From positions 1,240,001 to 1,304,000 of the forward strand of contig NZ_CP126267.1 in the NCBI RefSeq assembly GCF_001864935.2: DNA of 64,000 nt, written 5' to 3'. Positions 14,236 to 50,386 of the stretch are shown here, piece by piece. Every line of letters begins with the position of its first letter. Within the stretch, counting starts at the first letter, position 1. The notes beneath the pieces were generated by a model that was not told the DNA's origin, did no database searches, and worked only from the letters and a program-made list of their open reading frames with translations. The translations under genes were made by a program, and so were the position numbers. The DNA is from Curtobacterium sp. MCBA15_012 (GTDB taxonomy: Bacteria; Actinomycetota; Actinomycetes; Actinomycetales; Microbacteriaceae).

Positions 14236-14295
14236 GCACAACCGGAAGCACGTCGCACCACGCGATCCCGCGGCGCGACGTGCTTCCGGTTGTGC
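14236..14295. repeat. Long palindromic repeat, copy A
   Basis: Arms 14236-14256 and 14275-14295 are perfect 21-bp reverse complements around an 18-base centre that pairs partly. The arm begins GCACAACCGG and ends AGCACGTCGC. A 15-base piece of the right arm (GCGGCGCGACGTGCT) also occurs just before it at 14219-14233. Four other full copies are at 33833, 49999, 50131 and 50327. Confidence 0.85.
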
Positions 14296-14330
14296 ACGGC
14301 GCCAGTCCCGGTCGCGAGCCGAGCACCGGG

Positions 14331-14435
14331 CGTGACCACGCGCCTCCCGGCCTGGACCGTCCGGGCGCGACCACGCGCCTCCCGGCCTGGACCGTCCGGG
14401 CGTGACCACGCGCCTCCCGGCCTGGACCGTCCGGG
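14331..14435. repeat. 35-bp tandem repeat, three copies
   Basis: Copies at 14331-14365, 14366-14400 and 14401-14435 are nearly identical. Each contains CGCGCCTCCCGG, the complement of the recurrent GGGAGGCGCG word. The repeats end about 30 bases before the dapA -10. Confidence 0.9.
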
Positions 14436-14464
14436 CGGACTGCGGAGCGGACGCACCGGGCCGG

Positions 14465-14470
14465 TACGCT
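14465..14470 (+). promoter_or_regulatory. Candidate -10 (TACGCT) for leaderless dapA
   Basis: TACGCT ends seven bases before GTG 14478. Confidence 0.45.
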
Positions 14471-14477
14471 GGTCGGC

Positions 14478-15455
14478 GTGTCCCAGCGTGAGAATCCCTT
14501 CGGTCAGGTCCTCGTCGCCCTCGTGACGCCGTTCACGGCCGACGGCGAGGTCGACTGGCCCGGCGTCGAGCAGCACATCGACGACTGCATCACCGCCGGC
14601 GCCGACGGCATCGTCGTGACCGGCACCACCGGCGAGACGAGCACCCTGACCGACCCGGAGAAGCTCCGCCTGGTCGAGGTCGGCAAGTCCGTCGCCGCGG
14701 GCCGCGCGAAGATCATCACGGGCGGTGGCTCGAACGAGACCGCGCATGCGATCCACCTGTACAAGCAGAGCGAGCGGGCCGGCGCGGACGGCGTCATGAT
14801 CGTCACGCCGTACTACAACAAGCCGACGCAGGCCGGCGTGCTCACGCACTTCCGGATGATCGCGGACGCCACCGACCTGCCGGTGATCCTGTACGACATC
14901 CCCGGACGCACCGGCATCCCGATCACGTACGAGACCATCGTGCGCGCGTCGAAGCACCCGAACATCCTCGCCGTGAAGGACGCCAAGGGCGACTTCGCCG
15001 AGGTCTCGCGCGTGCTCAACAACACCGACCTCATGTACTTCTCGGGCGACGACACGAACGTCCTCCCGCACCTGTCGATCGGTGCCACGGGGCTCATCGG
15101 CGTCACCGCGAACATCACGAGCACGCCGTACCGCACCATCGTCGACGCCGTGAACCGCGGCGACCTGGCGACCGCGACCGCCGAGCACAAGCGCGTCGAA
15201 CCCCTCGTCCGTGCGATCATGACCCACGTCCCCGGGACCGTCGCCGCGAAGTACGTGCTGCACGGGCTCGGCCGGATCGGCAGCCCGCGCGTGCGGTTGC
15301 CGCTCGTCGGCCCCGAGGACAGCGAGGCGTACGCCATCGAGACCTCGCTCGAAGCGGTCCGGGACGTCCCCGGCGCCGACTTCTCGAACTTCCGTCCGGA
15401 CCGCAACGCAGCGGCGGGCGGCGCACTGCCGAAGGTGCCAGGCACCACACGTTAG
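14478..15455 (+). CDS. dapA: 4-hydroxy-tetrahydrodipicolinate synthase
   Basis: Protein of 325 residues that condenses pyruvate with aspartate semialdehyde, the first committed step of diaminopimelate/lysine synthesis. It is a TIM barrel of the DHDPS/NAL family: VTGTTGETSTLT (pyruvate-carboxylate loop), VTPYYNKPTQAG with the catalytic Tyr, and ILAVKDAKG with Schiff-base Lys167. The GTG start follows TACGCT by seven bases, so it is probably leaderless. About 30 residues at the C-terminus extend past the barrel. rnj follows after 47 bases, as commonly in actinobacteria, and may be cotranscribed. Confidence 0.97.
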   Translation: MSQRENPFGQVLVALVTPFTADGEVDWPGVEQHIDDCITAGADGIVVTGTTGETSTLTDPEKLRLVEVGKSVAAGRAKIITGGGSNETAHAIHLYKQSERAGADGVMIVTPYYNKPTQAGVLTHFRMIADATDLPVILYDIPGRTGIPITYETIVRASKHPNILAVKDAKGDFAEVSRVLNNTDLMYFSGDDTNVLPHLSIGATGLIGVTANITSTPYRTIVDAVNRGDLATATAEHKRVEPLVRAIMTHVPGTVAAKYVLHGLGRIGSPRVRLPLVGPEDSEAYAIETSLEAVRDVPGADFSNFRPDRNAAAGGALPKVPGTTR

Positions 15456-15502
15456 GAAGACCGCGGCGCGCTGGTGGCGCGTCGCACGACAGTCAGGACC
15501 GA

Positions 15503-17179: not shown

Positions 17180-17209
17180 CGCGCACGGCGCGCTGCGCGC
17201 CGCATTGCC

Positions 17210-17262
17210 GGCCAGGAGGCGCGGTGCACCTCCGTCAGGAACGTGCACCGCGCCTCCTGGCC
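17210..17262 (+). terminator. Terminator of the dapA-rnj unit
   Basis: Arms 17210-17229 and 17243-17262 are perfect 20-bp complements around a 13-base loop. The stem contains GGAGGCGCGG, a variant of the recurrent intergenic word. Confidence 0.75.
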
Positions 17263-17358
17263 GTCCACCGTCCGTGGTCCGTCGGCCGACGGCGGTCCCG
17301 TCCCACAGGCCAACCTGGTTCATCCCACAGGATGATGCTCCCTCGGTATGTCAGCCAA

Positions 17359-33600: not shown

Positions 33601-33614
33601 GACCGGACCAGAGG

Positions 33615-33832: not shown

Positions 33833-33900
33833 CGCCGCACAACGAGAGGCACGTCGCACCACGTGATCACGTGGCGCGACGTGCCTCTCGTTGTGCGGCG
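33833..33900. repeat. Long palindromic repeat, copy B
   Basis: Arms 33833-33857 and 33876-33900 are perfect 25-bp complements, and the centre 33859-33874 is itself a perfect 16-bp palindrome. The 68-bp element is therefore self-complementary except at one base pair. It lies between convergent hflX and lexA and shares its AGGCACGTCGCACCACG core with the other copies. Confidence 0.9.
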
Positions 33901-35233: not shown

Positions 35234-35249
35234 GTCGGAGCGTCGGCCC

Positions 35250-35330: not shown

Positions 35331-35397
35331 CGGCAGTGTGACCGTTCGCCCGTCAGTCACCGTCCGGACGGCCTGGGGCATGCAGCCCCCGTCGGCC

Positions 35398-35403
35398 TAC
35401 GAT
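35398..35403 (+). promoter_or_regulatory. Candidate -10 (TACGAT) for leaderless hisC
   Basis: TACGAT ends six bases before GTG 35410, the first gene of the his cluster. Confidence 0.5.
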
Positions 35404-35409
35404 GGATCG

Positions 35410-36516
35410 GTGGCAACCTCGCTCGACGACCTCCCCATCCGCGACGACCTCCGCGGGCAGAGCCCGTACGGCGCTCCTCAGAAGCACGTGCGTGTGCAGC
35501 TCAACGTCAACGAGAACACGCATCCCGTGCCGCAGGACGTCGCCGACGACATCGTCGCCTCCATCCGGCAGGCGCTGACCACGGTCAACCGGTACCCCGA
35601 CCGCGAGTTCACGGAGCTCCGCGAGTCCCTGGCCGCGTACCTCGGCCACGGACTCACCGCGGAGCAGCTGTGGGCAGCGAACGGCTCGAACGAGGTCCTG
35701 CAGCAGCTCCTGCAGGCGTTCGGGGGCCCGGGTCGCTCGGTGCTCGGCTTCCCGCCCACCTACTCGATGCACTCGATCCTCGCGGCCGGCACCGGGACGA
35801 CCTGGATCCCGGCAGAGCGTGACGACGAGTTCCGGATCTCGCCGGAGACCGTCGTCGCGGCGATCCGGGAGCACCAGCCCGACATCGTGTTCCTCTGCGG
35901 GCCGAACAACCCGACCGGGACCCCGCTGTCGATCGACACGATCCGTGCCGCCTACGACGCGACCGACGGCATCGTGATGGTCGACGAGGCGTACGCCGAG
36001 TTCATGCCCGTCGACGCCCCGAGCGCCGTGACCCTCCTGCCGGGACGCGAGCGCCTCGTGGTCTCCCGGACGATGAGCAAGGCGTTCGCCTTCGCGGGCG
36101 CCCGCGTCGGGTACATGGCCGCCGACCCCGCCGTGGTCGACGCGGTCCGGCTCGTCCGCCTGCCGTACCACCTGTCCGCCCTGACGCAGGCTGCCGCCGT
36201 CGCCGCGCTCCGCCACGCCCCGGAGATGCTCGCGATGGTCGACGACATCAAGGAGCAGCGCGACCGCATGGTGACCGAACTGGCCGCGATGGGCTACCGA
36301 ACCTACGAGACGTGGTCGAACTTCGTGTTGTTCGGTGGCGTCGCCGATCCGAATGCGGCGTTCGAGGCCCTGCTCGAGCAGGACGTCATCGTCCGGGACC
36401 TCGGGATCCCGAACCACCTGCGGGTGAGCGCCGGTACCGAGGAGGAGACCACCGCGTTCCTCGAGGCCATGCGCCGCGTCGCCGTCGACCAGCCCCCGGT
36501 TAGGGTTGCAGCATGA
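35410..36516 (+). CDS. hisC: Histidinol-phosphate aminotransferase
   Basis: Protein of 368 residues, a class II PLP aminotransferase that makes histidinol phosphate. [13 protein letters not shown] is the N-terminal substrate loop, [16 protein letters not shown] follows, [17 protein letters not shown] is the cofactor-phosphate region, [11 protein letters not shown] and [10 protein letters not shown] are family motifs, and [17 protein letters not shown] carries the PLP lysine. The GTG start is six bases after TACGAT, so the his transcript is probably leaderless. hisB overlaps its stop codon by four bases. A second -10-like TAGGGT in its last codons may serve hisB. Confidence 0.97.
36501..36506 (+). 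promoter_or_regulatory. Candidate internal -10 (TAGGGT) for hisB
   Basis: TAGGGT lies in the last codons of hisC and ends six bases before ATG 36513. Confidence 0.4.
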
Positions 36517-37115
36517 CCGCCCGTACCGCCGCCATCAGCCGGAGCACGAGCGAGTCGAGCATCGAGCTGTCGCTCGACCTGGACGGCACCGGCTCGTCCG
36601 ACGTCTCGACGAGCGTGCCCTTCTTCGACCACATGCTCACGGCGTTCAGCAAGCACTCGCTGATCGACCTCCGCGTCCGGTCGACGGGTGACACCGACAT
36701 CGACGTGCACCACACGGTCGAGGACACCGGCATCGTGCTGGGGCAGGCGATCAAGCAGGCCCTCGGCGACCGGTCCGGCATCGGCCGGTACGGTGACGCC
36801 CTCGTGCCGCTCGACGAGGCGCTCGCGCAGGCGGTCGTCGACGTGTCCGGCCGCCCGTACCTCGTGCACACCGGAGAGCCCGAGGGCTTCGCGTTCCACC
36901 GGATCGGCGGGCACTTCACCGGCTCGATGGTCCGCCACGTCTTCGAGGCGATCACGGTCAACGCGGGCATCACCGTGCACGTCCGGGTGCTCGGCGGTCG
37001 CGACCCGCACCACATCGCCGAGGCCGAGTTCAAGGCGTTCGCCCGGGCGATGCGTCGCGCGGTCGAGCTCGACCCCCGCGTCGACGGCATCCCGTCCACC
37101 AAGGGAGCACTGTGA
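36513..37115 (+). CDS. hisB: Imidazoleglycerol-phosphate dehydratase
   Basis: Protein of 200 residues, the monofunctional dehydratase without the phosphatase domain found in enterobacterial His[33 protein letters not shown] and [16 protein letters not shown] carry the His/Glu ligands of the two manganese ions. It acts after the HisF/HisH step and before HisC. ATG 36513 overlaps the hisC stop codon, and its stop overlaps the hisH GTG, so hisC-hisB-hisH are translationally coupled. The enzyme length is normal. hisF and hisG are not in this window. Confidence 0.97.
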
Positions 37116-37762
37116 CCGAGCTGCTGACCGGCGCGAAGCCGGACGTCGTCGTCCTCGACTACGGGTCCGGCAACGTCCACTCGGCCGCCAAGGCGCTCGA
37201 GCGCGCCGGGGCGAACGTCACCCTCACGGCCGACAAGCAGGCCGCGCTGCGCGCGGACGGTCTCCTGGTCCCCGGCGTCGGCGCGTTCGCCGCGGTCGTC
37301 GACCAGCTCGAGGGGGTGCGGGGCGGCGAGATCGTCGACCACCGCCTGGCCGGCGGACGCCCGGTGCTCGGCATCTGCGTCGGCATGCAGGTGATGTTCG
37401 CGCGCGGGATCGAGCGCGGGGTCGACGTCGAGGGCCTCGGGCAGTGGCCGGGCACGGTCGAGCAGATCGAGGCCGACGTCCTGCCGCACATGGGGTGGAA
37501 CACGGTCGAGGCCCCGGCCGACTCGGTGCTCTTCGACGGCCTGCACGACGAGCGGTTCTACTTCGTGCACTCCTACGGCGTCACCGACTTCCCGCTCGAT
37601 GCCTACGGTCCCTTCCGTGCGCCGGGCCTGACCTGGGCCGAGCACGGGCAGCGGTTCGTCGCGGCGGTCGAGAACGGCCCCCTCACGGCGACGCAGTTCC
37701 ACCCCGAGAAGTCGGGCGAGCCGGGCATCCGGCTCCTCCGGAACTGGGTGCAGTCGCTCTGA
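37112..37762 (+). CDS. hisH: Imidazole glycerol phosphate synthase, glutamine amidotransferase subunit
   Basis: Protein of 216 residues, a class I glutamine amidotransferase that supplies ammonia to His[23 protein letters not shown] is the N-terminal motif. [10 protein letters not shown] carries nucleophile Cys89, and [12 protein letters not shown] carries the catalytic His and Glu. The oxyanion region ([11 protein letters not shown]) is intact. GTG 37112 overlaps the hisB stop codon by four bases. After the gene comes a 300-base low-complexity spacer before hisA/priA, so cotranscription with the next gene is less certain. Confidence 0.97.
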
Positions 37763-38063
37763 TGCCCCGGCTCGGCGCCGCGTCGGCTCGGCTCGCTACG
37801 AGATGGCGCCTGCGCCGCGGACGCTCCCGGCGCGTGACCGCCGACCAGCCCCGCAGCGCCCGCGCGACCACGCGCAGCGGACGGTGACCAACCGCCCACG
37901 CGACCGCCGCGACGAGCGCGACCCGCGCCTCCAGACCGACACCAGCCCGACCGCCGCGACCAGCACGACCGCCACGACCAGCCCGACCGCCGCGACCAGC
38001 CCGACCAGCACGACCACCGCGACCACAGCCACCGACCCCCACCGCACCGGAGCCGACAGGACC
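37763..38063 (+). repeat. Low-complexity spacer between hisH and hisA
   Basis: About 300 bases with no convincing gene. The part from about 37905 to 38055 is built from variants of GACCAGC, GACCGCC and ACCACCGCGACC. The frame upstream of hisA stays open through it and would encode a Thr/Ala/Ser-rich stretch, but there is no ribosome-binding site or conserved sequence. I see no promoter that I would trust. Confidence 0.6.
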
Positions 38064-38810
38064 ATGACCGACCTCACCGCGACCCCGCCCCTCGTCCTGC
38101 TCCCCGCCGTCGACGTCGTCGACGGCCAGGCCGTCCGCCTCACGCAGGGCGAGGCCGGCAGCGAGACGTCGTACGGCGACCCGGTCGCCGCCGCCCGCAC
38201 CTGGCGCGACCAGGGCGCGGAGTGGATCCACCTCGTCGACCTCGACGCGGCGTTCGGCCGTGGCGACAACCGCCGCCTGATCGCGAAGGCGGTCCGCGAG
38301 GTCGAGGGCGTGTCGGTCGAGCTCTCCGGCGGGATCCGCGACGACGCCTCGCTCGAGGCGGCCCTCGCGACCGGGGCGGCCCGGGTGAACCTCGGCACCG
38401 CGGCGCTCGAGGACCCGGCGTGGGCGGCCCGGGTGATCGGTGAGTACGGCGACCAGATCGCGGTCGGCCTCGACGTCCGCGGCACGACGCTCGCGAGCCG
38501 CGGCTGGACCGAGGACGCCGGTGACCTGTGGGAGGTGCTCGACCGCCTCGAGGCCGCCGGCTGCTCGCGCTACGTCGTGACCGACGTCACGAAGGACGGC
38601 ACGCTCCAGGGCCCGAACGTCGACCTGCTGCGCGAGGTCTGCGACCGCACCGACCAGCCCGTCGTGGCCTCGGGTGGCATCTCGACGCTCGACGACCTCC
38701 GGGCGCTGCGCGAGCTCGTGCCGCACGGCCTCGAGGGCGCCATCATCGGCAAGGCGCTCTACTCGGGCGCGTTCACCCTGCCGGCCGCCCTCGACGTCGC
38801 CGGGGAGTAA
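38064..38810 (+). CDS. priA: Phosphoribosyl isomerase A (bifunctional HisA/TrpF type)
   Basis: Protein of 248 residues, a (beta/alpha)8 isomerase. [29 protein letters not shown] carries the first catalytic Asp and the Arg typical of Pri[42 protein letters not shown] and [17 protein letters not shown] (second Asp) closely follow actinobacterial PriA, which performs both the HisA step and the TrpF step of tryptophan synthesis. Whether this strain lacks trpF cannot be checked here, so HisA-only activity remains possible. ATG 38064 follows GGAG and ACAGG. sseB begins four bases after its stop codon. Confidence 0.93.
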
Positions 38811-38814
38811 CGCC

Positions 38815-39687
38815 GTGGCGGGTATCTCGAACGGCCGCGGCACCGGTCCCGACGCCGGCGCGGACGCATCGGGGACCGCCGCCGGCGCGGACGCACCGGG
38901 GGCCGCCGCACCGGACGACGCGCACACGCCCGGTGGTGCCGGCGACTCGGCCGGGAACCCGTGGGCCGGTCGGACGTTCGACCACCACGACGAGGCCTAC
39001 GCCGACGACGACGGCCTGGCCGACCCCGCCGTGGTCGCCGCGGTCCTCGCGTTGCAGCAGGGCGCGTCGCAGCGGGGCGTGGTGGACGCGCTCCGCTCGG
39101 CCCGGCTGCTCATCCCGCTCGTCGCGCAGGCCGGCGACGTCGGGCACACGCCCGACGGTCGGCTCGTCGACAAGACCCAGGAGCTGTCGATCGTCACGGT
39201 CGCCGGTCCCGACGGCCGCAGCGTCATGCCGGCGTTCACCTCGGCCGAGGCGATGCGGTCCTGGGACCCCGCCGCCCGTCCGGTGCCCGCGGACTCGCGG
39301 CGCGTGGCGATGGCCGCGGCGAGCGAGGAGACGCAGCTCGTCGTGCTCGACCCGACCGCGCCGACCGAGTTCGTGCTCCGCCGGCCGGCCGTGTGGGCGA
39401 TCGGGCAGGACCTGCCGTGGACGCCCTGCTTCGAGGACCCGGAGGTCGCGCAGGCGTTCGCGGACTCGATCGTCGGCGAGGACGCCGTCGCCCGTGTCGA
39501 GCTGTCGCCGGGGGACCCGCTCGGCCGGTTCGCGGGTGCCGAACTGACGGTCGGGCTCGCGCTGCGGCCGGGGCTCGACCAGACGGCGGTGCAGCAGCTC
39601 GTCGGCCGGCTGCAGGAGCGTTGGACGGCGGACGCCGTCATCGCCGACCGGGTGGACAGCATGCGGGTGGCCCTCCGCCCTGCCTGA
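38815..39687 (+). CDS. SseB family protein
   Basis: Protein of 290 residues, not membrane bound. The first 60 residues are Ala/Gly/Asp-rich and likely disordered. The SseB N-terminal domain follows: VVAAVLALQQGASQRGVVDALRSARLLIPLVA, KTQELSIVTVAGPDGRSVMPAFTSAEAMRSW and VVLDPTAPTEFVLRRPAVWAI. The family, named from a Salmonella gene, has no firmly known biochemical role; actinobacterial copies often lie next to hisA, as here. The GTG start lies four bases after the priA stop codon, so the two are likely cotranscribed. Tandem repeats start at its stop codon. Confidence 0.87.
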   Translation: MAGISNGRGTGPDAGADASGTAAGADAPGAAAPDDAHTPGGAGDSAGNPWAGRTFDHHDEAYADDDGLADPAVVAAVLALQQGASQRGVVDALRSARLLIPLVAQAGDVGHTPDGRLVDKTQELSIVTVAGPDGRSVMPAFTSAEAMRSWDPAARPVPADSRRVAMAAASEETQLVVLDPTAPTEFVLRRPAVWAIGQDLPWTPCFEDPEVAQAFADSIVGEDAVARVELSPGDPLGRFAGAELTVGLALRPGLDQTAVQQLVGRLQERWTADAVIADRVDSMRVALRPA

Positions 39688-39789
39688 CGGCCGGCGCGGG
39701 TCGCCTCCGGTGGACGGCTCGCTTGACCGTCGGCGCGGGTCGCCTCCGGTGGACGGCTCGCCTGACCGCCGGCCGGGAGGCGCGGGTCG
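39685..39789. repeat. 39-bp tandem repeat, about 2.5 copies
   Basis: Copies at 39685-39723 and 39724-39762 differ at a few bases; a degenerate third copy reaches about 39789 and contains GGGAGGCGCG. The first copy overlaps the stop codon of the SseB gene. Confidence 0.85.
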
Positions 39790-39882
39790 TCCCCGGCGGA
39801 CCGGCTCTGGTCGGCAGGTGGTGCCGTCCGGTGCGCGTGCGGACGCCCCGGCGGTGCGCCCGGCGCGGTGCCGGGTCGCCGG

Positions 39883-39888
39883 TACCAT
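39883..39888 (+). promoter_or_regulatory. Candidate -10 (TACCAT) for leaderless parA
   Basis: TACCAT ends six bases before GTG 39895. Confidence 0.5.
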
Positions 39889-39894
39889 GACGGG

Positions 39895-40773
39895 GTGAGC
39901 ACGAACCCGACGACCAGGCCCGGAACCGGCGATCCCGCGGTCGGCCCCACCGGCCGTCCCCGCCGCGAGTTCCCGGTGCCCGAGGAACTCGACGGCCACG
40001 GCCCGGCTCGCATCATCGCGCTGTGCAACCAGAAGGGCGGCGTCGGCAAGACCACGACGTCGATCAACCTCGGTGCGGCGCTCGCGGAGTACGGCCGCCG
40101 CGTCCTCGCCGTGGACTTCGACCCGCAGGGCGCGCTCTCCGCGGGGCTCGGGGTCCGGACCCACGACATCCCGACGGTCTACGACCTGCTGATGGGTTCC
40201 GTGAAGGACCCGAACCAGATCATCCAGCCGACGAACACGCCGGGGCTCGACGTCATCCCGGCGAACATCGACCTGTCCGCGGCCGAGGTGCACCTGGTCA
40301 ACGAGGTCGCCCGCGAGCAGATCCTGGCGAGCGTCCTCCGCAAGGTCTCGAACGACTACGACCTGATCCTCGTCGACTGCCAGCCCTCGCTCGGGCTCCT
40401 CACCGTGAACGCCCTGACCGCGGCGCACGGTGTGCTCATCCCGCTCGAGTGCGAGTTCTTCGCGCTGCGCGGTGTGGCGCTGCTCATCGAGACGATCGAC
40501 AAGGTGCGCGACCGGCTCAACCCGGCGCTCCGGCTCGACGGCATCCTCGCCACCATGTACGACTCGCGCACACTGCACTCGCGCGAGGTCATGGAGCGCG
40601 TCGTCGAGACCTTCGACGACCGCGTGCTCGACACGGTCATCAACCGCACCGTGAAGTTCCCGGACGCCACGGTGTCGGCGCGCCCGATCACCCAGACCGC
40701 GCCGGACCACGCCGCCGCGCACGCGTACCGGCAGTTGGCGCGGGAGCTCGTCCAGCGTGGCGCCGTCGCCTGA
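39895..40773 (+). CDS. ParA/Soj family ATPase
   Basis: Protein of 292 residues. After a 45-residue Pro/Arg-rich tail, IIALCNQKGGVGKTTTSINLGAAL is the deviant Walker A with the signature Lys. LAVDFDPQGALSAGLG is the Walker A', and YDLILVDCQPSLGLLTVNAL the Walker B region. The sequence is that of chromosomal ParA-like ATPases that lie directly before scpA and scpB in many actinobacteria, a copy distinct from the parAB genes near the origin. Its partner is unknown. The likely role is in chromosome organisation with condensin. It ends in a 17-base overlap with scpA. Confidence 0.94.
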   Translation: MSTNPTTRPGTGDPAVGPTGRPRREFPVPEELDGHGPARIIALCNQKGGVGKTTTSINLGAALAEYGRRVLAVDFDPQGALSAGLGVRTHDIPTVYDLLMGSVKDPNQIIQPTNTPGLDVIPANIDLSAAEVHLVNEVAREQILASVLRKVSNDYDLILVDCQPSLGLLTVNALTAAHGVLIPLECEFFALRGVALLIETIDKVRDRLNPALRLDGILATMYDSRTLHSREVMERVVETFDDRVLDTVINRTVKFPDATVSARPITQTAPDHAAAHAYRQLARELVQRGAVA

Positions 40774-41608
40774 CGCCGCCTCCGCTCGGTCGGCCGACGC
40801 GCCGGCCGGCACCACGACGGCGCCCGGGTTCCGGGTGCGGCTGCGCAACTTCGACGGCCCGTTCGACCTGCTGCTGTCGCTCATCACGAAGCACGAGCTC
40901 GACATCACCGAGGTGTCGCTCGGCGCCGTGACGGGGGAGTTCATCGCCTACGTGCGCCAGGCGGAGTCGGCGGACGAGCTCGACGAGGCCAGCGAGTTCC
41001 TCGTCGTGGCCGCGACCCTGCTCGACCTGAAGATCGCCGGCCTCCTGCCGCAGGGCGAACTCGTCGACGCCGAGGACGTCGCCCTGTTGGAGGCCCGCGA
41101 CCTGCTGTTCGCACGACTGCTGCAGTACCGGGCGTTCAAGCAGGCGGCCGAGTGGTTCGGCGAGCGGTGGCTGACCGAGTCCCGCCGACACGTCCGCCGG
41201 GTGCGCCTGGAGGAACGGTTCCGCGCCCGGACGCCCGAGCTCGTGTGGACCCTGTCGGTGCAGGACTTCGCCGCGATCGCGACGCTCGCCTTCGCGCCGC
41301 GCGAGCTGCCGACCGTCGGGCTCGACCACCTGCACGCACCGCTCGTCAGCATCCGCGAGCAGGCCGCCATCGTCGTGTCGATCCTGCGGACGCGCGCCGA
41401 CGAGGACGTCCCGTTCCGCGAACTGGTCGCGGGCGTCTCGGAGACGGGTATCGTGGTGGCTCGCTTCCTGGCGATCCTGGAGCTGTACCGGAACGCGTCG
41501 ATCTCGTTCGAGCAGTTCGAACCGCTGGGGGAGCTGACACTCCGGTGGACCGCCGAGGACTGGTCCGACGAGAGCCTCGCCGACCTGGGAGCCGACTATG
41601 ACGGATGA
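40757..41608 (+). CDS. scpA: Segregation and condensation protein A
   Basis: Protein of 283 residues, the kleisin subunit of the SMC-ScpAB condensin. FRVRLRNFDGPFDLLLSLITKHELDITEVSL is the N-terminal SMC-neck contact region. SADELDEASEFLVVAATLLDLKIAGLLP is the central helical segment that binds ScpB, and the C-terminal winged helix contains EDVPFRELVAGVSETGIVVARFLAILELYRNASISFEQFEPLGELTLRW. The GTG start at 40757 lies inside parA, and scpB starts before its end, so parA-scpA-scpB are coupled. A 20-residue Ala/Thr-rich tail precedes the conserved domain. Confidence 0.96.
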   Translation: MAPSPDAASARSADAPAGTTTAPGFRVRLRNFDGPFDLLLSLITKHELDITEVSLGAVTGEFIAYVRQAESADELDEASEFLVVAATLLDLKIAGLLPQGELVDAEDVALLEARDLLFARLLQYRAFKQAAEWFGERWLTESRRHVRRVRLEERFRARTPELVWTLSVQDFAAIATLAFAPRELPTVGLDHLHAPLVSIREQAAIVVSILRTRADEDVPFRELVAGVSETGIVVARFLAILELYRNASISFEQFEPLGELTLRWTAEDWSDESLADLGADYDG

Positions 41609-42347
41609 CGCCGTGCCGCACGACGCGGCTGCCGTCGCGCGCCACGGCGGCGCCGGTGCCGAACCCGGGGGAGCGGACGAGGTCGCCGACGCCGCCGCGC
41701 TCGAGCACGAGCTGCGCGCGGGGGCCGATGCCGCACCCGAGCCGGACCCCGACGAGGGCCGTCGTGCGCCCGTCGACGTCCCCGTCGACCGGCAACTCGA
41801 GGCGATCCTGATGATCGCCGACGAGCCGCAGTCGCCCGTCGCCCTCGCGGCCGCGGTCGGCGCACCGGTCCCGGTCGTGCGCCAGGCCCTCGAACGGCTC
41901 GTCGCCGACTTCGACGGCGTCGACGGCACCGTCCGACGTGGCTTCGAGCTGCGCGAGGTCGGCGGTGGCTGGCGCTTCTACGTGCGCGAGGAGCTCGACG
42001 CCGTCGTGGAGCAGTTCGTCGAGGCGGAGCGCCCGGCGCGGCTGTCCCAGGCGGCGCTCGAGACCCTGGCCGTCGTGGCCTACAAGCAACCGATCACCCG
42101 GTCACAGATCGCCTCGATCCGGGCCGTGAACGTGGACGGCGTGGTCCGCACGCTCGTCGCGCGCGGCCTCATCGAGGAGTCGTTCACCGACGCCGAGACC
42201 GGCGCGATCAACTACATCACGTCCGGGCTGCTGCTCCAGCAGCTCGGAATCAACTCGCTCGACGAGCTGCCGCTGATCTCTCCACTCCTGGAGGACGGAA
42301 CGGGCGGCTTCGGGCAGGACGAAGGGATCCCCGATGGCCGCGTTTGA
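41598..42347 (+). CDS. scpB: Segregation and condensation protein B
   Basis: Protein of 249 residues, the winged-helix dimer that stabilises ScpA on SMC. The conserved part begins near residue 65 ([22 protein letters not shown]) and includes [65 protein letters not shown] and [26 protein letters not shown], the second winged helix. The first 60 residues are acidic and Ala-rich with no domain. It overlaps scpA by 11 bases and the pseudouridine-synthase gene by 14, so four genes are coupled. Confidence 0.96.
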
Positions 42348-44583
42348 GGACGGACGACGAGGTGGGCCGCGCGGCGGCTCCGCAGGACGGTCGGGAGGCG
42401 CGCCCCGCGACCGCGACGGCGGCTCCGGTCGGTCGGGTGGCCGGCCCGGTGAGGACCGTGGCGGGTACCGCGGACGCGACGAGCGGTCCGGTGGCGACCG
42501 TGGTGGGTACCAGGGTCGCGACGACCGGTCCGGCGGTGGCTACCGCGGTCGTGACGAGCGTCCCGCCGGTGGTGGCTACCGGGGTCGTGACGAGCGTCCC
42601 GCCGGTGGCGGGAACCGCGGTCGTGACGAGCGTCCCGCCGGTGGCGGGTACCGGGGTCGTGACGAGCGTCCCGTTGGTGGCGGGTACCGGGGTCGTGACG
42701 AGCGTCCCGCTGGTGGTGGGTACCGCGGTCGTGACGAGCGTCCGACCGGTGGTGACCGTGGTGGGTACCAGGGTCGGGACGACCGCTCCGGTGGCGGCTA
42801 CCGCGGGCGCGACGAGCGTCCCGCCGGAGGTGGGTACCAGGGTCGGGACGACCGCTCCGGCGGTGGGTACCGCGGACGTGACGAGCGTCCGGCCGGTGGT
42901 GGCTACCGGGGTCGTGACGACCGTTCCGGTGGCGACCGTGGTGGGTACCAGGGTCGTGACGACCGCTCCGGCGGTGGGTACCGCGGACGTGACGAGCGTC
43001 CGGCCGGTGGTGGCTACCGGGGTCGTGACGAGCGTCCGGCCGGTGGAGACCGTGGTGGGTACCAGGGCCGGGACGACCGTTCCGGCGGTGGGTACCGCGG
43101 CCGTGACGAGCGTCCGGCGGGTGGTGGCTACCGGGGTCGGGACGAGCGTCCGTCCGGTGGCGACCGTGGTGGGTACCAGGGTCGGGACGACCGTTCCGGT
43201 GGCGGCACCCGCGGTCGTGACGACCGGTCCGGCGGCGGCGACCGCGGTCGCTTCGTCGGCCGTGAGGACGACCGACGCGGTGGTGACCGTGGTGGCTTCG
43301 TGCGCCGCGAGGACGACCGTGGCGGGTACCGGGGTCGTGACGACCGTTCCGGTGGCGGTGACCGTGGTGGGTACCGGGGTCGGGACGATCGTTCCGGCGG
43401 CGGTGACCGTGGTGGGTACCGCGGCCGTGACGAGCGTTCCGGTGGCGGTGACCGTGATGGGTACCGCGGCCGTGACGACCGCGGCGGCGACCGTCGCCCC
43501 ACGGGCGGCCGCGACGACCGCCGTGACGACCGCCGGGACCCGGCCCGCGAGGACCGTCGCACGCCCGACGGGCGCCCCAGCACGGTCTGGCACAACGGCC
43601 GCCGGTACGTCGGCGGCACCACGACGGCGCGCAACGGTGACCGCCAGGGCGCCTCGGCGCAGCGCGACACCGCCCGCCGCACGACGCCGCGCCCGGAGGG
43701 CGCCCGCGACGAGCACGGACTGCCGGTCGAGGGCACGCCCGAGCGGCCGCTGATCCCGGACTGGGACGCGTCCGAGGCGACGTCGACCGCCGGGGGCGAG
43801 GCGAGCCTCCAGGCCGACGGTGAGCGCCTGCAGAAGGTGATCGCCGCTGCGGGCGTGGCGTCCCGACGCGTCGCGGAGAACCTGATCGTCGAGGGCCGCG
43901 TGACGGTCAACGGCGAGGTCGTGGACGCGCTCGGCCGCCGGGTCGACCCGGCAACCGACGAGATCGCCGTCGACGGTCTGCCGGTGCAGATCGACTCCTC
44001 GCGACGGTACGTGCTCCTCAACAAGCCGACCGGCATGGTGTCGAGCCTGCAGGACGAGCGCGGCCGACGCGACCTGTCCGAGTACGTCGACCGCTACGAG
44101 GAGCGCCTGTTCAACGTGGGTCGCCTCGATGCCGAGACGTCGGGCCTCCTGCTGCTGACGAACGACGGCGACCTGGCACACGTGCTCGCCCACCCGTCGT
44201 TCGGCGTCGCCAAGACCTACATCGCGAAGGTGCACGGCAACGTGAACCCTGCCGTCGTGCAGCGGCTGCTCGAGGGCGTCGACCTCGAGGACGGGCCGAT
44301 CGCGGCGGACAAGGTGCGGCTCATCGAGTCGTCCCGCGGCGAGTCCTTGGTCGAGGTCACGCTGCACTCGGGCCGCAACCGGATCGTCCGGCGCATGTTC
44401 GAGGCGGTCGACCACCCGGTCATCGAGCTCGTCCGGCGGTCGTTCGGTCCGCTCCAGCTCGGGTCGCTGCCGATCGGCAAGACGCGCGAGCTCTCCAAGG
44501 TCGAGCTCGGGGGACTGCTCCGCATGGCCCGCGAGGCGAAGGGGACGGCGCAGGACGACGCAGACGAGGAGTCGACGGACTGA
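42334..44583 (+). CDS. RluB/RsuA-type pseudouridine synthase with long RGG-like repeat arm
   Basis: Protein of 749 residues. The C-terminal 255 residues are a normal RluB/RsuA enzyme: S4 domain from about residue 495 ([23 protein letters not shown]), then [22 protein letters not shown], the catalytic [17 protein letters not shown] with its Asp near residue 595, and [14 protein letters not shown]. It isomerises a uridine in rRNA. The first 490 residues are a disordered, highly repetitive Gly/Arg/Asp/Tyr arm with units such as [12 protein letters not shown], resembling eukaryotic RGG/RGYR RNA-binding tails. The gene starts inside scpB. Normal homologues have a much shorter extension, so the arm is the unusual part. 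Confidence 0.93.
42460..43500 (+). repeat. Coding tandem repeats (36-bp and related units)
   Basis: A series of units encoding [12 protein letters not shown] (36 bases) and variants such as [11 protein letters not shown] and [10 protein letters not shown] runs through most of the N-terminal arm of the pseudouridine synthase. Unit lengths stay multiples of three, so the main frame is preserved. Two other frames are also free of stop codons over much of it, as expected for repeated GC-rich codons. Confidence 0.9.
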
Positions 44584-44590
44584 CGCTCGG

Positions 44591-44596
44591 TAGGCT
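44591..44596 (+). promoter_or_regulatory. Candidate -10 (TAGGCT) for leaderless tyrA
   Basis: TAGGCT ends six bases before GTG 44603. Confidence 0.5.
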
Positions 44597-44602
44597 GGCG
44601 GG

Positions 44603-45721
44603 GTGACCGACACCCCCGCCGTGCCCGCCGACGTCGACCGACGCCTCCGCGGACCGGTCCGGATCGTCGGCGCCGGCCTGCTCGGGGCGTCGATCGGCCT
44701 GGCGCTCCGCGAGAAGGGCGTGGACGTCGTCCTCGACGACGTCTCGCCCGCAGCCCTCGCGCTCGCCGTCGACTACGGCGCCGGCCGACGCCCCGCCGAC
44801 GGCGACGACCCCGAACTCGTGGTCGTCGCCGTGCCCCCGGACGTCGTGGCGACGGTCGTCGAACGGGAACTCGCGGCCTGGCCCCGCGCGATCGTCACCG
44901 ACGTCGCCAGCGTCAAGACGGGACCGCTCGAGCGGCTGCTCGCCGCCGGAGCCGACGTCGGCCGGTACATCGGCTCGCACCCGATGGCCGGACGCGAGCG
45001 GAGCGGTCCGACCGCCGCCCGCGCCGACCTGTTCGTCGGACGCCCCTGGGTGATCGCCGGGCACGACGCGATCTCCTACCAGCGTGCGGCGGTCGTCGAG
45101 GACCTCGCGCTCGACGTCGGTGCGACGGTCGTGCCGATGGACCCCGAGGCGCACGACCTCGCGGTGGCGTACGTGTCCCACGCCCCGCAGCTCGTCTCGA
45201 CGCTCATGGCGGCGCGGCTGCAGGCGGCACCGGACGGGTCGCTCGACCTGGCCGGCGGCGGGGTCCGCGACGTCACCCGGATCGCCGCGAGCGACCCCGG
45301 CCTGTGGGTGCAGATCATCGGCGCGAACGCGGGGCACATCCGCCCCGTGCTCACCGACCTGCGCGACGACCTCGACCGGGTGATCGCGGCGCTCGGCGAC
45401 CCGGACGCCGCGGGCGCGCCCCGAGCGATCGCCGAGACGATCGCCGCCGGCAACCGCGGGGTCGAGCGGCTGCCCGGCAAGCACGGCACCACGAAGCGCT
45501 TCGCCCGGGTGGTCGTCCTCGTCGACGACACCCCGGGCCAGATCGCCGCGCTCCTCGCGTTCATCGGGGAGATCGGCATCAACCTCGAGGACATGCGCCT
45601 CGAGCACTCACCGGGCGCACCGATCGGCATCGTCGAGGTGTCGGTCGTGCCCGAGCAGGAACAGCGACTCGTCGAGGAACTCGAGGGTCGCGGATGGAGG
45701 ATCGCAGCAGCATGGGCCTGA
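44603..45721 (+). CDS. tyrA: Prephenate dehydrogenase with ACT domain
   Basis: Protein of 372 residues of the tyrosine pathway, oxidatively decarboxylating prephenate. [20 protein letters not shown] is the NAD(P)-binding loop near the N-terminus. [28 protein letters not shown] and [17 protein letters not shown] are the active-site motifs with the conserved His residues. The C-terminal ACT domain (about residues 298-372: [36 protein letters not shown]) suggests amino-acid feedback control. The GTG start is six bases after TAGGCT. cmk overlaps its end. Confidence 0.94.
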
Positions 45722-46587
45722 ACAACGAGACGACCCCGACCGCGCACGACTCCGGCGTCACCGGCGGTCCGGACGGGCCCGACACCGGGCTGCCGACGCC
45801 GGGGAACTCCACCGGGCCGCTCGGCGGCGGCGACGTCGCCGGTGGGCTGGACGGGCAGGGCGGCGGCGAGCCCGGCTCGACGAGCGCCCCGGTCCCGTCC
45901 GGGTTGCCCGCGGGTGCCTTCGTCGCGAAGACCGTCATCGCCGTCGACGGCCCGGCCGGCAGCGGCAAGTCGAGCGTCTCCCGTGCGGCCGCACGCGTGC
46001 TCGGCTTCGGCTACCAGGACACCGGGGCCGCGTACCGCGCCCTCGCCTGGCACGCGCTGCAGCAGCGCGTCGACCTGGACGACCCGGCGGCCGTCCTCGC
46101 GAGCTGGGACACCTTCGACTACGCGATCGGCACCGACCCCGACGACTACTTCGTCCGCGTGGGCGACACCGACGTGACCGACGCGATCCGCACGCCCGAG
46201 GTCACCGCAGCCGTCGCCCACATCGCGAAGCTCCCGGAGGTCCGTGAGCGGCTCGTCCAGCTCTTCCGCCAGGTCATGCGGAAGGCCGACGCGCAGGGCA
46301 TCATCACCGAGGGACGCGACATCACGACCGTCGTCGCACCCGACGCCGAGGTCCGGATCCTGCTGACCGCCGACGAGTCGGTTAGGATGGCCCGACGCTC
46401 GGCTGAGGTCACGACCCAGTCGGCCGCCGAGACCTCCGCCGCACTCGCCCGACGCGACGCGGCGGACGCGAAGGTCGTCGACTTCATGAACGCCGCGGAC
46501 GGTGTCACGACGCTCGACTCCACCGACCTCGACTTCGACCAGACCGTCCAGGCGGTCGTCGACCTGGCCCGAGCGGCCACGCACTGA
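45712..46587 (+). CDS. cmk: Cytidylate kinase with N-terminal extension
   Basis: Protein of 291 residues that phosphorylates CMP and dCMP. The kinase core starts near residue 72: [21 protein letters not shown] holds the P-loop (about 80-87), [19 protein letters not shown] the CMP-binding region, and [33 protein letters not shown] the LID region. The first 70 residues are a Gly/Pro/Asp-rich disordered extension, since typical cytidylate kinases are about 225 residues. ATG 45712 lies 11 bases after GGAGG and inside tyrA; ATG 45694 is an alternative six codons earlier. der follows after a repeat-bearing spacer. Confidence 0.93.
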
Positions 46588-46605
46588 CGTGAGACCGGGC
46601 GCCGT

Positions 46606-46686
46606 CCGGTCACCACGACCGGGCAGCCGGTCACCAGGACCGGGCAGTCCGGTCACCAGGACCGGGCAGCCGGTCACCAGGACCGG
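46606..46686. repeat. 21/22-bp tandem repeat, about four copies
   Basis: Units CCGGTCACCAGGACCGGGCA start at 46606, 46627, 46649 and 46670, with one-base changes and one 22-base unit. The unit contains CCGGTC/GACCGG dyads, so it can also form hairpins. It fills the cmk-der spacer. Confidence 0.85.
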
Positions 46687-46769
46687 TTCCCCGGCCACCA
46701 CGGCCGGGGGACCGGCCCGGCCGGGAACGGCCACCGACACCGCGGCCCGACCGCACACGAGGAAACGAC

Positions 46770-48293
46770 ATGGCCCAACAGGACAGCCCCGACAACGACG
46801 ACTTCCCGGAGTACGACGACGCCCTGGGTGAGCGGCTCGCCGGTCTCGACGAGGCCGAGGCCGACCAGCGGGCGAACGCGCTCCGCGCCGGCCTGGACGA
46901 GTACGAGCTCGACGACGAGGACGTCGCGCTCCTCGACGCCGGCACCATCGGCGAGGACGGCCTGCACTACCTGCCGGCCTACCCGGTGCTCGCGATCGTC
47001 GGACGGCCGAACGTCGGCAAGTCCGCGCTCGTCAACCGCATCATCGGTCGCCGCGAGGCCGTCGTCCAGGACGTCCCCGGCGTCACCCGCGACCGCGTCT
47101 CGTACAAGGCCGAGTGGAACGACAAGCGATTCACCCTCGTCGACACCGGCGGGTGGGAGCCCGACGCCCGCGGCATCAACGCCTCGGTCGCCGCCCAGGC
47201 CGAGGTCGCGGTCGACCTCGCCGACGCCGTCCTGTTCGTCGTCGACGTCACGGTCGGCATCACCGCGACCGACGAGCACGTCGTGAAGATGCTGCGCGGC
47301 ACCGACCGCCCGGTCATCGTCGCCGCCAACAAGGCCGATGACGACCGTCGCGACCTCGACGCGTTCGAGCTCTGGAACCTGGGTCTCGGCGAGCCGCACC
47401 CGGTCTCGGCGCTGCACGGCCGCGGCGTCGCGGACCTGATGGACCTCATCATCAAGACGCTCCCCGACACGTCGGCCGTCGCCAAGCAGGAGGTCGGCGG
47501 GCCCCGACGCGTCGCCATCCTGGGCCGCCCGAACGTCGGCAAGAGCTCGCTGCTCAACAAGGCGGCGGGCGAGGAGCGCGTGGTCGTCAACGACCTCGCC
47601 GGCACCACCCGCGACCCGGTCGACGAGCAGATCGAGCTCGGCGGCAAGATCTGGCGCTTCGTCGACACCGCGGGCATCCGCAAGCGCGTGCACCTGCAGC
47701 AGGGCGCCGACTTCTACGCGTCGCTCCGCACCACCGCGGCGCTCGAGAAGGCCGAGGTCGCGGTCGTCGTGCTCGACGTCACCGAACCCGTGTCGACGCA
47801 GGACCTCCGCATCATCGACCTGGTGCTCGAGTCCGGCCGGGCACTCGTCCTGGCCTACAACAAGTGGGACCTGCTCGACGACGACCGCCGCCGCTACCTG
47901 GAGCGCGAGATCGAGCAGGACCTGGCGCACGTCGCCTGGGCCCCGCGCGTGAACATCTCCGCACGCACCGGACGCCACCTCGAGAAGCTCGTCCCGGCCC
48001 TCGAGACCGCGCTCGAGTCGTGGGACACGCGCATCCCGACCGGCAAGGTCAACGCCTTCATCGCCGAGCTCGTGCAGGAGCACCCGCACCCGGTCCGCGG
48101 CGGCAAGCAGCCCCGCATCCTGTTCGGGACCCAGGCGTCGAGCCAGCCGCCGACGTTCGTCCTGTTCACGTCGGCGTTCCTCGACCCGCAGTACCGCCGC
48201 TTCATCACGCGCCGCCTGCGCGAGGTGTGGGGCTTCTCGGGTACCCCGATCAACGTGAACATGCGGGTGCGCGAGCGCCGGAAGCGCACCTGA
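46770..48293 (+). CDS. der: GTPase Der (EngA)
   Basis: Protein of 507 residues, the double-G-domain GTPase needed for 50S assembly. Domain 1 has [14 protein letters not shown] (about residues 76-89), [17 protein letters not shown] and NKAD; domain 2 has [33 protein letters not shown] and NKWD. The C-terminal KH-like domain contains [18 protein letters not shown] and [36 protein letters not shown]. An acidic, about 70-residue N-terminal extension precedes domain 1, as is common in actinobacteria. ATG 46770 follows GAGGAAACGAC. Confidence 0.97.
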
Positions 48294-48466
48294 TCCGAGC
48301 GGATCCGGACGAGACACGGCGAGTCGCGGTCATCCCGTCACTCGCCGTCGTCGTCCGGGCGGCGGGCGGTGGACCGCGGTCGTCTGCGTGGTCTGCGAAC
48401 GTCGGGTGCGCGGCGGACGGGAGGCGCGGTGTCGGACCGCCCCGCCGGATGCGGCACCATGGACTC

Positions 48467-48991
48467 GTGCGTCTCCCCGTCCTCGCCGACCGTCTGTGGT
48501 GTCGGCTGCACCTCGACCGCCTGGCCGGCGGTCGCCAGGCCGCGTACGTCATCCGCGAGGACATGCTCGCCCACCCCGACACCGTGCGGTCGTTCCGGTG
48601 GATCCGCTGGCTGCTCGTCGGTGAGACCGTCGTCGGGCTCGCCGCCATCGTGATCGCCGTGCTGCTCACCCGTGCGGGTGAGACCGTCGCATGGGCGGTG
48701 TGGTTCCGCGCGACCGTGGTGCTGCTCATCACCCTGACGCTCTACGTGTTCGCGTGGCGCGCGCAGTTGGGCTACTACTGGGCGTACCAGCGACTGCGGC
48801 TCTTCAGCCGGATCTTCCCGATCGTGACGCTCGTCGTCGCAGCGATCCCCGGGCTCTACCCGTTCTGGATGGTCATCGAGCAGATCGTCTTCTCGCTGCT
48901 CATGATCGGGATCGGCGACGTCCTGACGAGCGACCACATGCGATCGACGTTCCCGAAGCCGGACCGCGCGCGGGTGACGGGTCGGCACTAG
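48467..48991 (+). CDS. Small multi-pass membrane protein, function unknown
   Basis: Protein of 174 residues with about four hydrophobic segments (near residues 45-65, 75-98, 118-135 and 138-158). The N-terminus (VRLPVLADRLWCRLHLDRLAGGRQAAYVIREDMLAHPDTVRSF) is polar and basic. I do not recognise a named family. GTG 48467 is preferred because CACCAT ends six bases before it, the pattern seen at parA; ATG 48449 would add six residues. It lies downstream of der and may be transcribed with the aldo/keto reductase gene that follows. No catalytic motif is visible. Confidence 0.65.
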   Translation: MRLPVLADRLWCRLHLDRLAGGRQAAYVIREDMLAHPDTVRSFRWIRWLLVGETVVGLAAIVIAVLLTRAGETVAWAVWFRATVVLLITLTLYVFAWRAQLGYYWAYQRLRLFSRIFPIVTLVVAAIPGLYPFWMVIEQIVFSLLMIGIGDVLTSDHMRSTFPKPDRARVTGRH

Positions 48992-49070
48992 TCGTCCCGG
49001 AGCACTCCCGCGACGACCAGGGGACAACGGGAGCCAGGTGGGTCCGAGGCGCGCGGAGCAGGGTCGACGC

Positions 49071-49940
49071 ATGACGAACGACACGCTCCCCGGGGGCACG
49101 TACGACCTCGGCGACCTCGAGGTCACCCGCTTCGGCTACGGCGCCATGCAGCTCGCCGGCCCGCAGGTCTTCGGACCGCCCGAGGACCGCGACGAAGCCG
49201 TCCGGGTCCTCCGCACCGCCGTCGAGCTCGGCATCACGCACATCGACACCGCGGACTTCTACGGCCCGCACGTCACGAACGAGATCATCCGCGAGGCCCT
49301 GCACCCGTACCCGGGCGACCTCCACATCGTCACGAAGGTCGGCAGTCGGCGGAACGCGAAGGGACAGTGGCCGCCCGCGCGGAAGCCCGAGCAGCTGGTC
49401 GAGGACGTGCACGCCAACCTCGAACGTCTCGGCGTCGAGCAGCTCGACGTCGTCAACCTCCGCGTCGGCGGCTTCGACGCGCCCGAGCCCGGCAGCATCG
49501 CGCCGCAGTTCGAGGCGCTGGCCGAACTCCGGCAGCAGGGGCTCATCCGGCACCTCGGCCTGTCGACCGTCACCGGTGCGCAGCTCGTCGAGGCGCTCGC
49601 CATCGCCCCGGTCGTGTGCGTGCAGAACATGTACAACGTCGCGCAGCGAGCCGACGACGACCTGGTCGACCTGACCGCGGCCGAGGGGATCGCCTTCGTG
49701 CCCTACTTCCCGCTCGGCGGGTTCTCGCCCATCCAGTCGAGCGCGCTCGACGCCGTCGCGGAGCGCGTGGGGGAGTCGCGGCTGTCGGTCGCGCTCGCCT
49801 GGCTGCTGCAGCGCTCGCCGAACATCCTGCTCATCCCGGGCACGTCGTCGGTCGAGCACCTGCGCGCGAACGTCGCCGGTGCGGGCATCACCCTGCCGGC
49901 GGACGCGCTCGCCGAGCTGGACGCCATCGGCGCCGCCTGA
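49071..49940 (+). CDS. Aldo/keto reductase
   Basis: Protein of 289 residues, an NADPH-dependent TIM-barrel oxidoreductase. FGYGAMQLAG, ITHIDTADFYGPHVTNEIIREAL (catalytic Asp and Tyr), LHIVTKVGS (catalytic Lys) and the C-terminal cofactor motif LLIPGTSSVEHLRANVAG are intact. It belongs to the oxidoreductase branch that includes YdbC-like proteins acting on aldehydes; the substrate is unknown. ATG 49071 follows GGAGCAGGG. The frame is open upstream to 49038, which adds 11 residues. The gene is convergent with the RecQ-type helicase gene, with three long palindromes between. Confidence 0.9.
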   Translation: MTNDTLPGGTYDLGDLEVTRFGYGAMQLAGPQVFGPPEDRDEAVRVLRTAVELGITHIDTADFYGPHVTNEIIREALHPYPGDLHIVTKVGSRRNAKGQWPPARKPEQLVEDVHANLERLGVEQLDVVNLRVGGFDAPEPGSIAPQFEALAELRQQGLIRHLGLSTVTGAQLVEALAIAPVVCVQNMYNVAQRADDDLVDLTAAEGIAFVPYFPLGGFSPIQSSALDAVAERVGESRLSVALAWLLQRSPNILLIPGTSSVEHLRANVAGAGITLPADALAELDAIGAA

Positions 49941-49998
49941 CGCGTCGGCCGCCGGCGCCGGTCGCCTGCGCCGGTGCGGAACGGCCTGGTGCCGACGT

Positions 49999-50062
49999 CC
50001 GCACAACCAGAAGCACGTCGCACCACGCGATTCCGTGGTGCGAGGTGCTCCCGGTTGTGCGG
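49999..50062. repeat. Long palindromic repeat, copy C
   Basis: A near-perfect palindrome of 64 bases. Its left half starts CCGCACAACCAGAAGCACG, its centre is CACCACG-CGATTC-CGTGGTG, and the right half has a few mismatches. It is the first of three copies between convergent genes. Confidence 0.85.
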
Positions 50063-50130
50063 GAGCACTCCGCGCCGCGGGACGGTCATGACGGTGCGCG
50101 GGGGCGGTACGCACGGCCGTGCGGACGTCT

Positions 50131-50190
50131 GCACAAGCGAAAGCACGTCGCGCCACGCGATTCCGTGGTGCGACGTGCTCCCGGTTGTTC
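50131..50190. repeat. Long palindromic repeat, copy D
   Basis: Starts GCACAAGCGAAAGCACGTCG and ends with CGGTTGTTC. It shares the CGATTC loop with copies C and E and about 14 bases of 5' flank with copy E. Confidence 0.85.
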
Positions 50191-50326
50191 GGAAGTATTC
50201 CGCGCCGCTGAAGAGCGGGACGGCCGCCGGGCCGACGTGGGATCGAAGGACGGCGGGACGGCGGGAGCGGTCCGGCGGTCACGGGGCGGCGGTCGCCGGG
50301 CGGCGCATGCGGCCGTGCGGACGTCC

Positions 50327-50386
50327 GCACAAGCGAAAGCACGTCGCACCACGCGATTCCGTGGTGCGACGTGCTTTTCGTTGTTC
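50327..50386. repeat. Long palindromic repeat, copy E
   Basis: Starts GCACAAGCGAAAGCACGTCG and ends CGTTGTTC. The 5' flank (CCGTGCGGACGTC) is nearly the same as that of copy D, so the duplicated unit is longer than the hairpin. The 526-base gap 49941-50466 holds copies C, D and E and no gene that I can support. Confidence 0.85.

What the first reader, a model, noticed from the sequence alone, without database searches (positions are those of the whole stretch)
14236..50386. Family of 60-68 bp near-perfect palindromes between genes
Five full copies (14236-14295, 33833-33900, 49999-50062, 50131-50190, 50327-50386) share an outer GCACAAC...GTTGTGC arm and a core close to AAGCACGTCGCACCACG with its complement. 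All are intergenic, four of five between convergent genes. Copy B is self-complementary over 68 bases except one pair. The arms differ between copies by compensating changes (for example CCGGAAG/CTTCCGG against CGAGAGG/CCTCTCG), which suggests selection for pairing. They look like REP/BIME-type elements, but I do not know a described family with this core.
Basis: partly seen in the sequence, partly recalled or inferred. Interest (0 to 1): 0.7.

Follow-up and report, generated by a model that had tools for sequence, protein, structure and literature searches.

The report
Scattered hairpin repeats between Curtobacterium genes
A small hairpin-forming piece of DNA, about 80 letters long, is scattered through the genome of a plant- and soil-type bacterium, nearly always just after gene ends; it looks like a tiny mobile element, but the enzyme usually thought to move such elements was not found.

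Summary
In detail: all five palindromes are where stated, intergenic, four of five between convergent genes. They belong to a dispersed family with 74 copies in this 3.58 Mb genome (Curtobacterium, judged by HflX similarity) in 52 spacers: 33 convergent, 17 tandem, 2 divergent; none inside a predicted gene. Conservation stops at both ends, and two copies one base apart lie in unrelated flanks, so it has spread as a discrete unit. Related copies occur across the genus (45 of 60 genomes at E<=1e-9), present or absent at the same spacer in different species. Arms A and B covary; C does not follow them. The Y1 transposase domain of RAYTs was found in 0 of 60 Curtobacterium genomes. Best reading: a REP/REPIN-like non-autonomous repeat, outside the GTAG and CGTC classes and without a RAYT, at gene 3' ends, where its strong hairpin (A-rich 5' arm, U-rich 3' arm) plausibly stops or insulates converging transcription. 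Mobility is inferred, the enzyme unknown, the terminator role untested.

The parts
14217..14296 (-). Copy 1: palindrome 14235-14296 with clear half C on its left (14217-14234); tandem spacer
33836..33897 (.). Copy 2: palindrome, near-perfect (self-complementary to 33833-33900); half C not recognisable (best score 11 of 15, at another offset); hflX-lexA convergent spacer
50000..50079 (+). Copy 3: palindrome 50000-50061 plus half C (score 12 of 15); convergent spacer 49941-50466
50130..50209 (+). Copy 4: palindrome 50130-50191; half C degenerate (9 of 15)
50326..50405 (+). Copy 5: palindrome 50326-50387; half C degenerate (10 of 15)

Best explanation
A non-autonomous, REP/REPIN-like dispersed repeat of Curtobacterium. 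The unit is about 80 bp and asymmetric: half A (CGCACAACNGGAAGCACGTCGCRCCACG), 6-base loop, inverted half B, and a third direct half C (GGAGCACGTCGCRCCACG). Shown: 74 discrete copies, ends visible in the alignment, near-identical copies in unrelated flanks, presence or absence at one spacer between species, placement after gene ends, covariation of A with B, slower change than the flanks within the species, no Y1 domain found in 60 genomes of the genus. Inferred: the unit spread by duplicative insertion through an unidentified non-Y1 activity, multiplied locally into arrays, and persists at gene 3' ends because it is harmless or useful there. The most likely local effect is a very stable RNA hairpin with A-rich 5' arm and U-rich 3' arm on either strand, which would terminate or insulate converging transcription.
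For: 74 places with R1; relative entropy falls to background outside about -2 to +79 in 52 copies, one per spacer, and copies 969158/3348454 differ at 1 of 62 bases, stay alike through half C and then diverge. Half C at one fixed offset in all 42 copies where it scores 12 or more of 15, against 1 of 74 per side at such a score further out. 33 of 52 occupied spacers convergent against 17 of 140 unoccupied in the same stretches (p 6e-12). Copies in 5 of 30 congeneric AKR spacers, none matched in 25. Element 29/2227 changed against flanks 179/4194. PF01797 0 of 60. Folding -51 to -64 kcal/mol; T 51% at positions 49-58, A 49% at 3-12.
Against: No insertion event, target duplication or enzyme was seen; the only same-species comparison could not show empty sites. 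Half C is not clear in 32 of 74 copies. The U-tract is interrupted. The terminator scan scored three of the four window copies in its range, and only on the minus strand. 10 of 20 further AKR spacers have no scored palindrome, so termination there does not need one. A RAYT too divergent for Pfam is not excluded.
Confidence: 0.6

Rival explanations
1. The copies are simply bidirectional intrinsic terminators of convergent genes, alike through shared function and gene conversion and not through movement.
For: 33 of 52 spacers convergent, median 77 bp after a stop codon; hairpin with A-rich and U-rich arms; slower change than flanks; other palindromes occupy the same hflX-lexA spacer in many congeners (by eye).
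Against: Asymmetric unit with half C and defined ends, arrays of up to 6, loop-for-loop identical copies at distant loci, and related spacers without the element or any scored palindrome (that scan also missed two true copies, L338 and L341).
Confidence: 0.2
2. True RAYT-driven REPINs whose RAYT was lost from the genus or is too divergent for Pfam.
For: REPIN-like doublets and positions (abstract of PMC3116915).
Against: PF01797 0 of 60 in the genus, 2 of 249 in the family, 5 of 14 controls positive; no GTAG tag in the consensus.
Confidence: 0.1
3. Binding sites of a chromosome-organising or regulatory protein.
For: Outer CGCACAAC and inner CRCCACG boxes stay constant between species while the stem varies.
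Against: A protein site need not keep the variable stem paired, yet it covaries; presence is patchy between species at the same spacer.
Confidence: 0.07
4. Recombination sites related to integron attC sites (outer AAC/GTT ends; motif recalled).
For: Palindrome with conserved outer 7-mers and variable stem.
Against: Sites lie between separate gene pairs, not in cassette arrays; integrase not searched.
Confidence: 0.03

Closest known systems
REPIN/REP elements with RAYT (GTAG superfamily)
   Same: Short extragenic palindromic units, inverted doublets that fold, dispersed, grouped copies, downstream of genes (PMC3116915 abstract; PMC3733652 abstract and section 15)
   Different: No Y1/RAYT domain found in the genus; no GTAG tag; no exact solo half-sites (28 of 28 fall in copies); a third half-site; longer, near-perfect stem
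CGTC-tagged REPs (PMC3733652, sections 6 and 15 and passages read)
   Same: REP-like and reported to lack a dedicated transposase; between convergent and unidirectional genes
   Different: They have an unpaired CGTC tag and 8-9 bp stems; here CGTC occurs only inside the paired stem and is not kept across the genus
Bidirectional intrinsic terminators
   Same: Convergent gene ends, GC-rich stem, A-rich 5' and U-rich 3' arm
   Different: A repeated family with asymmetric unit and arrays; tract interrupted; function untested
MITEs
   Same: Small, non-autonomous, dispersed, hairpin-forming
   Different: Ends are not terminal inverted repeats of each other, no target duplication seen, no parent transposon found

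Membership tests
REPIN/RAYT system | Two REP units inverted, forming a hairpin | tested here: met
   halves A and B in all 74 copies
REPIN/RAYT system | Cognate Y1 tyrosine transposase (RAYT, PF01797) | tested here: not met
   0 of 60 genus genomes, 2 of 249 family genomes and none of the carriers among them
REPIN/RAYT system | GTAG tag at one end of the unit | tested here: not met
   absent from the consensus of 74 copies and its ends
CGTC REPs | Unpaired CGTC (or TGTC/CCTC) at one end, 8-9 bp stem | tested here: not met
   CGTC lies in the paired stem here and is replaced in other species; stem up to 28 bp
MITE | Terminal inverted repeats and target-site duplication | tested here: inconclusive
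   the 5' end (CGCACAAC) and 3' end (CRCCACG) are not inverted repeats of each other; spacers unalignable, so no duplication could be judged
Intrinsic terminator | Stable hairpin followed by a U-rich tract at a gene 3' end | tested here: inconclusive
   hairpin and position met; tract 51% U, interrupted; simple scan positive at 3 of the 4 window copies in its range, minus strand only
Intrinsic terminator | RNA 3' ends at the site | not testable with these tools
   no expression data

The most novel reading that the evidence does not exclude
A further superfamily of REP-like elements in Microbacteriaceae (with a sister family in at least one other genus, G316), built from three half-sites and dispersed without any Y1/HUH transposase, by an unknown enzyme or by replication template switching that also keeps its arms matched.
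Probability: 0.35. Interest if true: 0.65.

Novelty: new variant of a known kind. Interest (0 to 1): 0.45.

Why it matters
Much of REP/REPIN biology rests on RAYT transposases. A genus with up to 74 counted copies of a REP-like unit, visible unit ends, presence or absence between species and no Y1 domain found in 60 genomes is a good setting to ask what else can disperse such elements, a question that PMC3733652 left open for CGTC repeats. If the hairpins also end transcription, they would explain part of the 3'-end signals of these high-GC genomes.

Tried and rejected
RAYT mobilisation: no support in the genus and nearly none in the family. A neighbouring gene as mobiliser: 10 proteins next to or between copies scanned in Pfam and 10 in NCBIfam (4 in both sets), giving ordinary functions, regulators, transporters or no hit; most other neighbours of the 52 spacers were not scanned. 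The unassigned 317-aa protein between copies 2385624 and 2386819 (P0002) looks to me like an AbiEi-like protein with a nuclease-like C-terminus (recalled, no call bears it). Phage or plasmid origin: no viral contigs match for one exact half-site pattern, no plasmid match for one 121-bp query. Known RNA family: only a tRNA in the window; relaxed matches at the array are miRNA families and one sRNA, all far below their cut-offs. Integron attC: considered, not pursued; no integrase search. Loss within the species: not testable as done, because the G058 stretches were chosen for holding an R1 match; 10 of 74 copies had no G058 partner, some because draft contigs end there. Target duplication: spacers unalignable. 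Terminator alone: kept as a rival.

Full report
Observation. All five palindromes exist at the given coordinates. The core pattern hits the window 4 times against 0 in 100 shuffles. The window is bases 1240001-1304000 of a single 3,577,139-bp contig.

Copy number. A covariance model R1 from 31 copies gives 149 hits in the genome: both strands of 74 places plus one weak hit at E 0.12. 150 of 7159 candidates were scored; the drop from 4e-9 to 0.1 suggests that the list is nearly complete. 43 copies are alone in their spacer and 31 lie in nine arrays of 2-6.

Anatomy. Reading all 74 copies shows more than a palindrome. A third copy of the half-site (C) follows half B on one side, at the same offset in all 42 copies where it scores 12 or more of 15; at such scores the control stretch further out has 1 of 74 on each side. 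In the other 32 copies C is degenerate or not recognisable, and one copy (2448630) has such a half on both sides. One copy per spacer (52) gives relative entropy near background outside about -2 to +79, apart from a single G at -6, so the unit is about 80 bp. Copies 969158 and 3348454 differ at 1 of 62 bases, loop included, stay alike through half C (9, 7 and 8 of 10 in successive tens) and then become unrelated; the other side is unrelated at once. That is what a copied discrete unit would leave. The next-closest copies in different spacers differ at 4 or more of 62 bases, so recent copying is rare. All 28 exact half-sites of the genome fall in the 74 copies.

Position. With my own simple ORF caller, 0 of 74 copies lie inside genes; 51 are in convergent, 21 in tandem and 2 in divergent spacers. 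By spacer: 33, 17 and 2, against 17, 81 and 42 copy-free spacers in the same stretches (Fisher p 6e-12 for convergent, 4e-5 for divergent). These stretches were chosen for holding copies, so this is not a genome-wide rate. The median distance from a stop codon to the nearest copy is 77 bp (83 gene ends). In 17 tandem spacers half C points downstream in 11, upstream in 5, and one is mixed, a weak trend.

Pairing. In the first 31 copies, chosen by a fixed core, the five measures were reached by 56, 130, 5, 417 and 26 of 500 shuffles, with several arm columns unpaired in 13 of 31. In 73 of the 74 copies (one with an indel left out) the percentage paired (90.1), the cells with double changes (102 against 55.5) and the score were reached by 0 of 500 shuffles, but the number of pairs with double changes by 62 and the pair types by 28 of 500. 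Arrays hold related copies, which inflates such counts. In the best copies from 25 of 29 other genomes (one of the same species), 97.7% of cells pair and 15 of 28 pairs change on both sides, 0 of 500 shuffles; those rows were picked by a model that rewards pairing. The stem of A equals that of B in 50 of 74 copies; the stem of C equals A in 12 of the 42 copies with a clear C. Between G000 and same-species G058 one copy (1661393) differs by four bases in one arm that make it match the other arm, and one (1273836) differs at 3 bases but at only 1 after inversion. Pairing rises in some of the changed copies and falls in others. Template switching can do both kinds of change (PMC8794818, abstract and opening; PMC8604942, start of the abstract in the listing), so covariation alone does not prove selection for pairing.

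Evolution within the species. 64 of 74 copies pair with a G058 copy by their flanks; 29 are identical; in an earlier pass 61 matched on both sides. In 36 single-copy pairs the element differs at 29 of 2227 bases and the 60-bp flanks at 179 of 4194 (p 1e-11). Only sites with a recognisable copy in both strains enter, and flank indels can mislead, both of which favour this result. The G058 stretches were picked for holding a match, so empty sites could not appear.

Across species. The fixed core with up to 2 mismatches finds 41 copies here, 1 in G015 and 0 in the 37 other relatives. R1 matches 59 of 60 congeners at E 0.01 and 45 of 60 at 1e-9 (at most 65 candidates scored per genome). Weak matches can be other hairpin families, as L225 and L247 show. 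The 29 best copies that I read (one per genome) share CGCACAAC-like outer ends and CCACG-like inner boxes with different stems. Of 80 named Microbacteriaceae loci around hflX, only C. flaccumfaciens JUb65 has a clear match; C. pusillum, the other Curtobacterium there, has none, and a weak one in Compostimonas (E 5e-4) does not look like the family. Of 249 Microbacteriaceae genomes 10 match at E 0.001: 4 of the 5 listed Curtobacterium, G316, and five others at one weak place each. G316, of another genus, carries a sister family, CGCACCACGATCGGGACTCGGCACCACG and its inverse.

Same spacer, different species. hflX-lexA (30 loci): R1 matches 10 at E below 1e-6, 8 of which I read as this family; by eye most of the other 22 carry a different palindrome. 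Spacer after the aldo/keto reductase gene, window 49941-50466 (30 loci): three copies each in G000 and G058, one each in G070, G071 and G015; no match in the spacer of the other 25 (one, L364, has a weak match elsewhere in its locus). G017, G052, G055 and G042 have short spacers, and a palindrome scan found nothing there; the same scan also missed the true copies in L338 and L341, so it is not proof of absence of weaker hairpins. In L344 (G016) another sequence follows. Of the remaining 20 loci, 10 have a scored palindrome of another kind and 10 have none.

Mobiliser. PF01797 gives 0 of 60 in the genus and 2 of 249 in the family, with 5 of 14 control genomes positive. Di Nocera et al. (PMC3733652; abstract, passages, sections 6 and 15 read) report that CGTC REPs also lack a dedicated transposase and that REPs lie mainly between convergent and unidirectional genes, so a RAYT-less REP-like family has precedent; this one has neither tag, and the word Actinobacteria does not occur in that main text. 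Neighbours scanned gave, among others, FUSC, histidine phosphatase, rRNA adenine dimethylase, epimerase, aldo/keto reductase and MFS families, and no transposase.

Function. The 62-nt palindrome of copy 2 folds at -57.8, and 81-nt units of copy 3 and of copy 969158 at -51.4 and -64.0 kcal/mol (z -11.9, -5.9, -9.4); the alternative B-C hairpin alone gives -24.5 (z -2.3). Positions 49-58 are 51% T and 3-12 are 49% A, against 10% T in the upstream flank: the layout of a bidirectional terminator with an interrupted U-tract. The simple terminator scan of 33400-50600 found 6 sites (1.9 expected), all at the three clustered copies and all on the minus strand, none at copy 2. This is inference from sequence.

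Verdict. A genus-wide REP/REPIN-like repeat with an unusual third half-site and no Y1 transposase found; probably mobile in the past and probably acting as a 3'-end hairpin. Paper searches showed me no description for Curtobacterium; the one full-text look at a Curtobacterium genome note (PMC4698388, two passages) mentions only CRISPR repeats.

Noticed in passing
window 7027-7070, 17209-17263, 33613-33662: A second palindromic family (GGACGGGAGGCGCGG... and a CGGCCAGGAGGC variant) at gene ends, also present in several congeneric spacers.
   Followed up: partly
L221, L224, L225, L229, L232, L233 (hflX-lexA spacer of congeners): Another palindrome family of similar layout, CGAACCACGGAACCGACRTCGAACCAG and its inverse, near lexA (by eye).
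   Followed up: no
L329-L334 (genome G316): Sister family CGCACCACGATCGGGACTCGGCACCACG with nearby extra half-sites in another Microbacteriaceae genus.
   Followed up: partly
L117:4056-4730: Protein P0004 between copies 585891 and 588957 resembles the SdpC toxin family, below its curated cut-off.
   Followed up: no
L075:1710-2663: 317-aa protein P0002 without Pfam or NCBIfam match, with a copy on either side within 160 bp.
   Followed up: partly
window 42418-43534, 55028-55157, 63228-63382: Dense short-period repeats overlapping long open reading frames.
   Followed up: no
window 55334-55407: A tRNA gene, the only Rfam match in the window at gathering scores.
   Followed up: no
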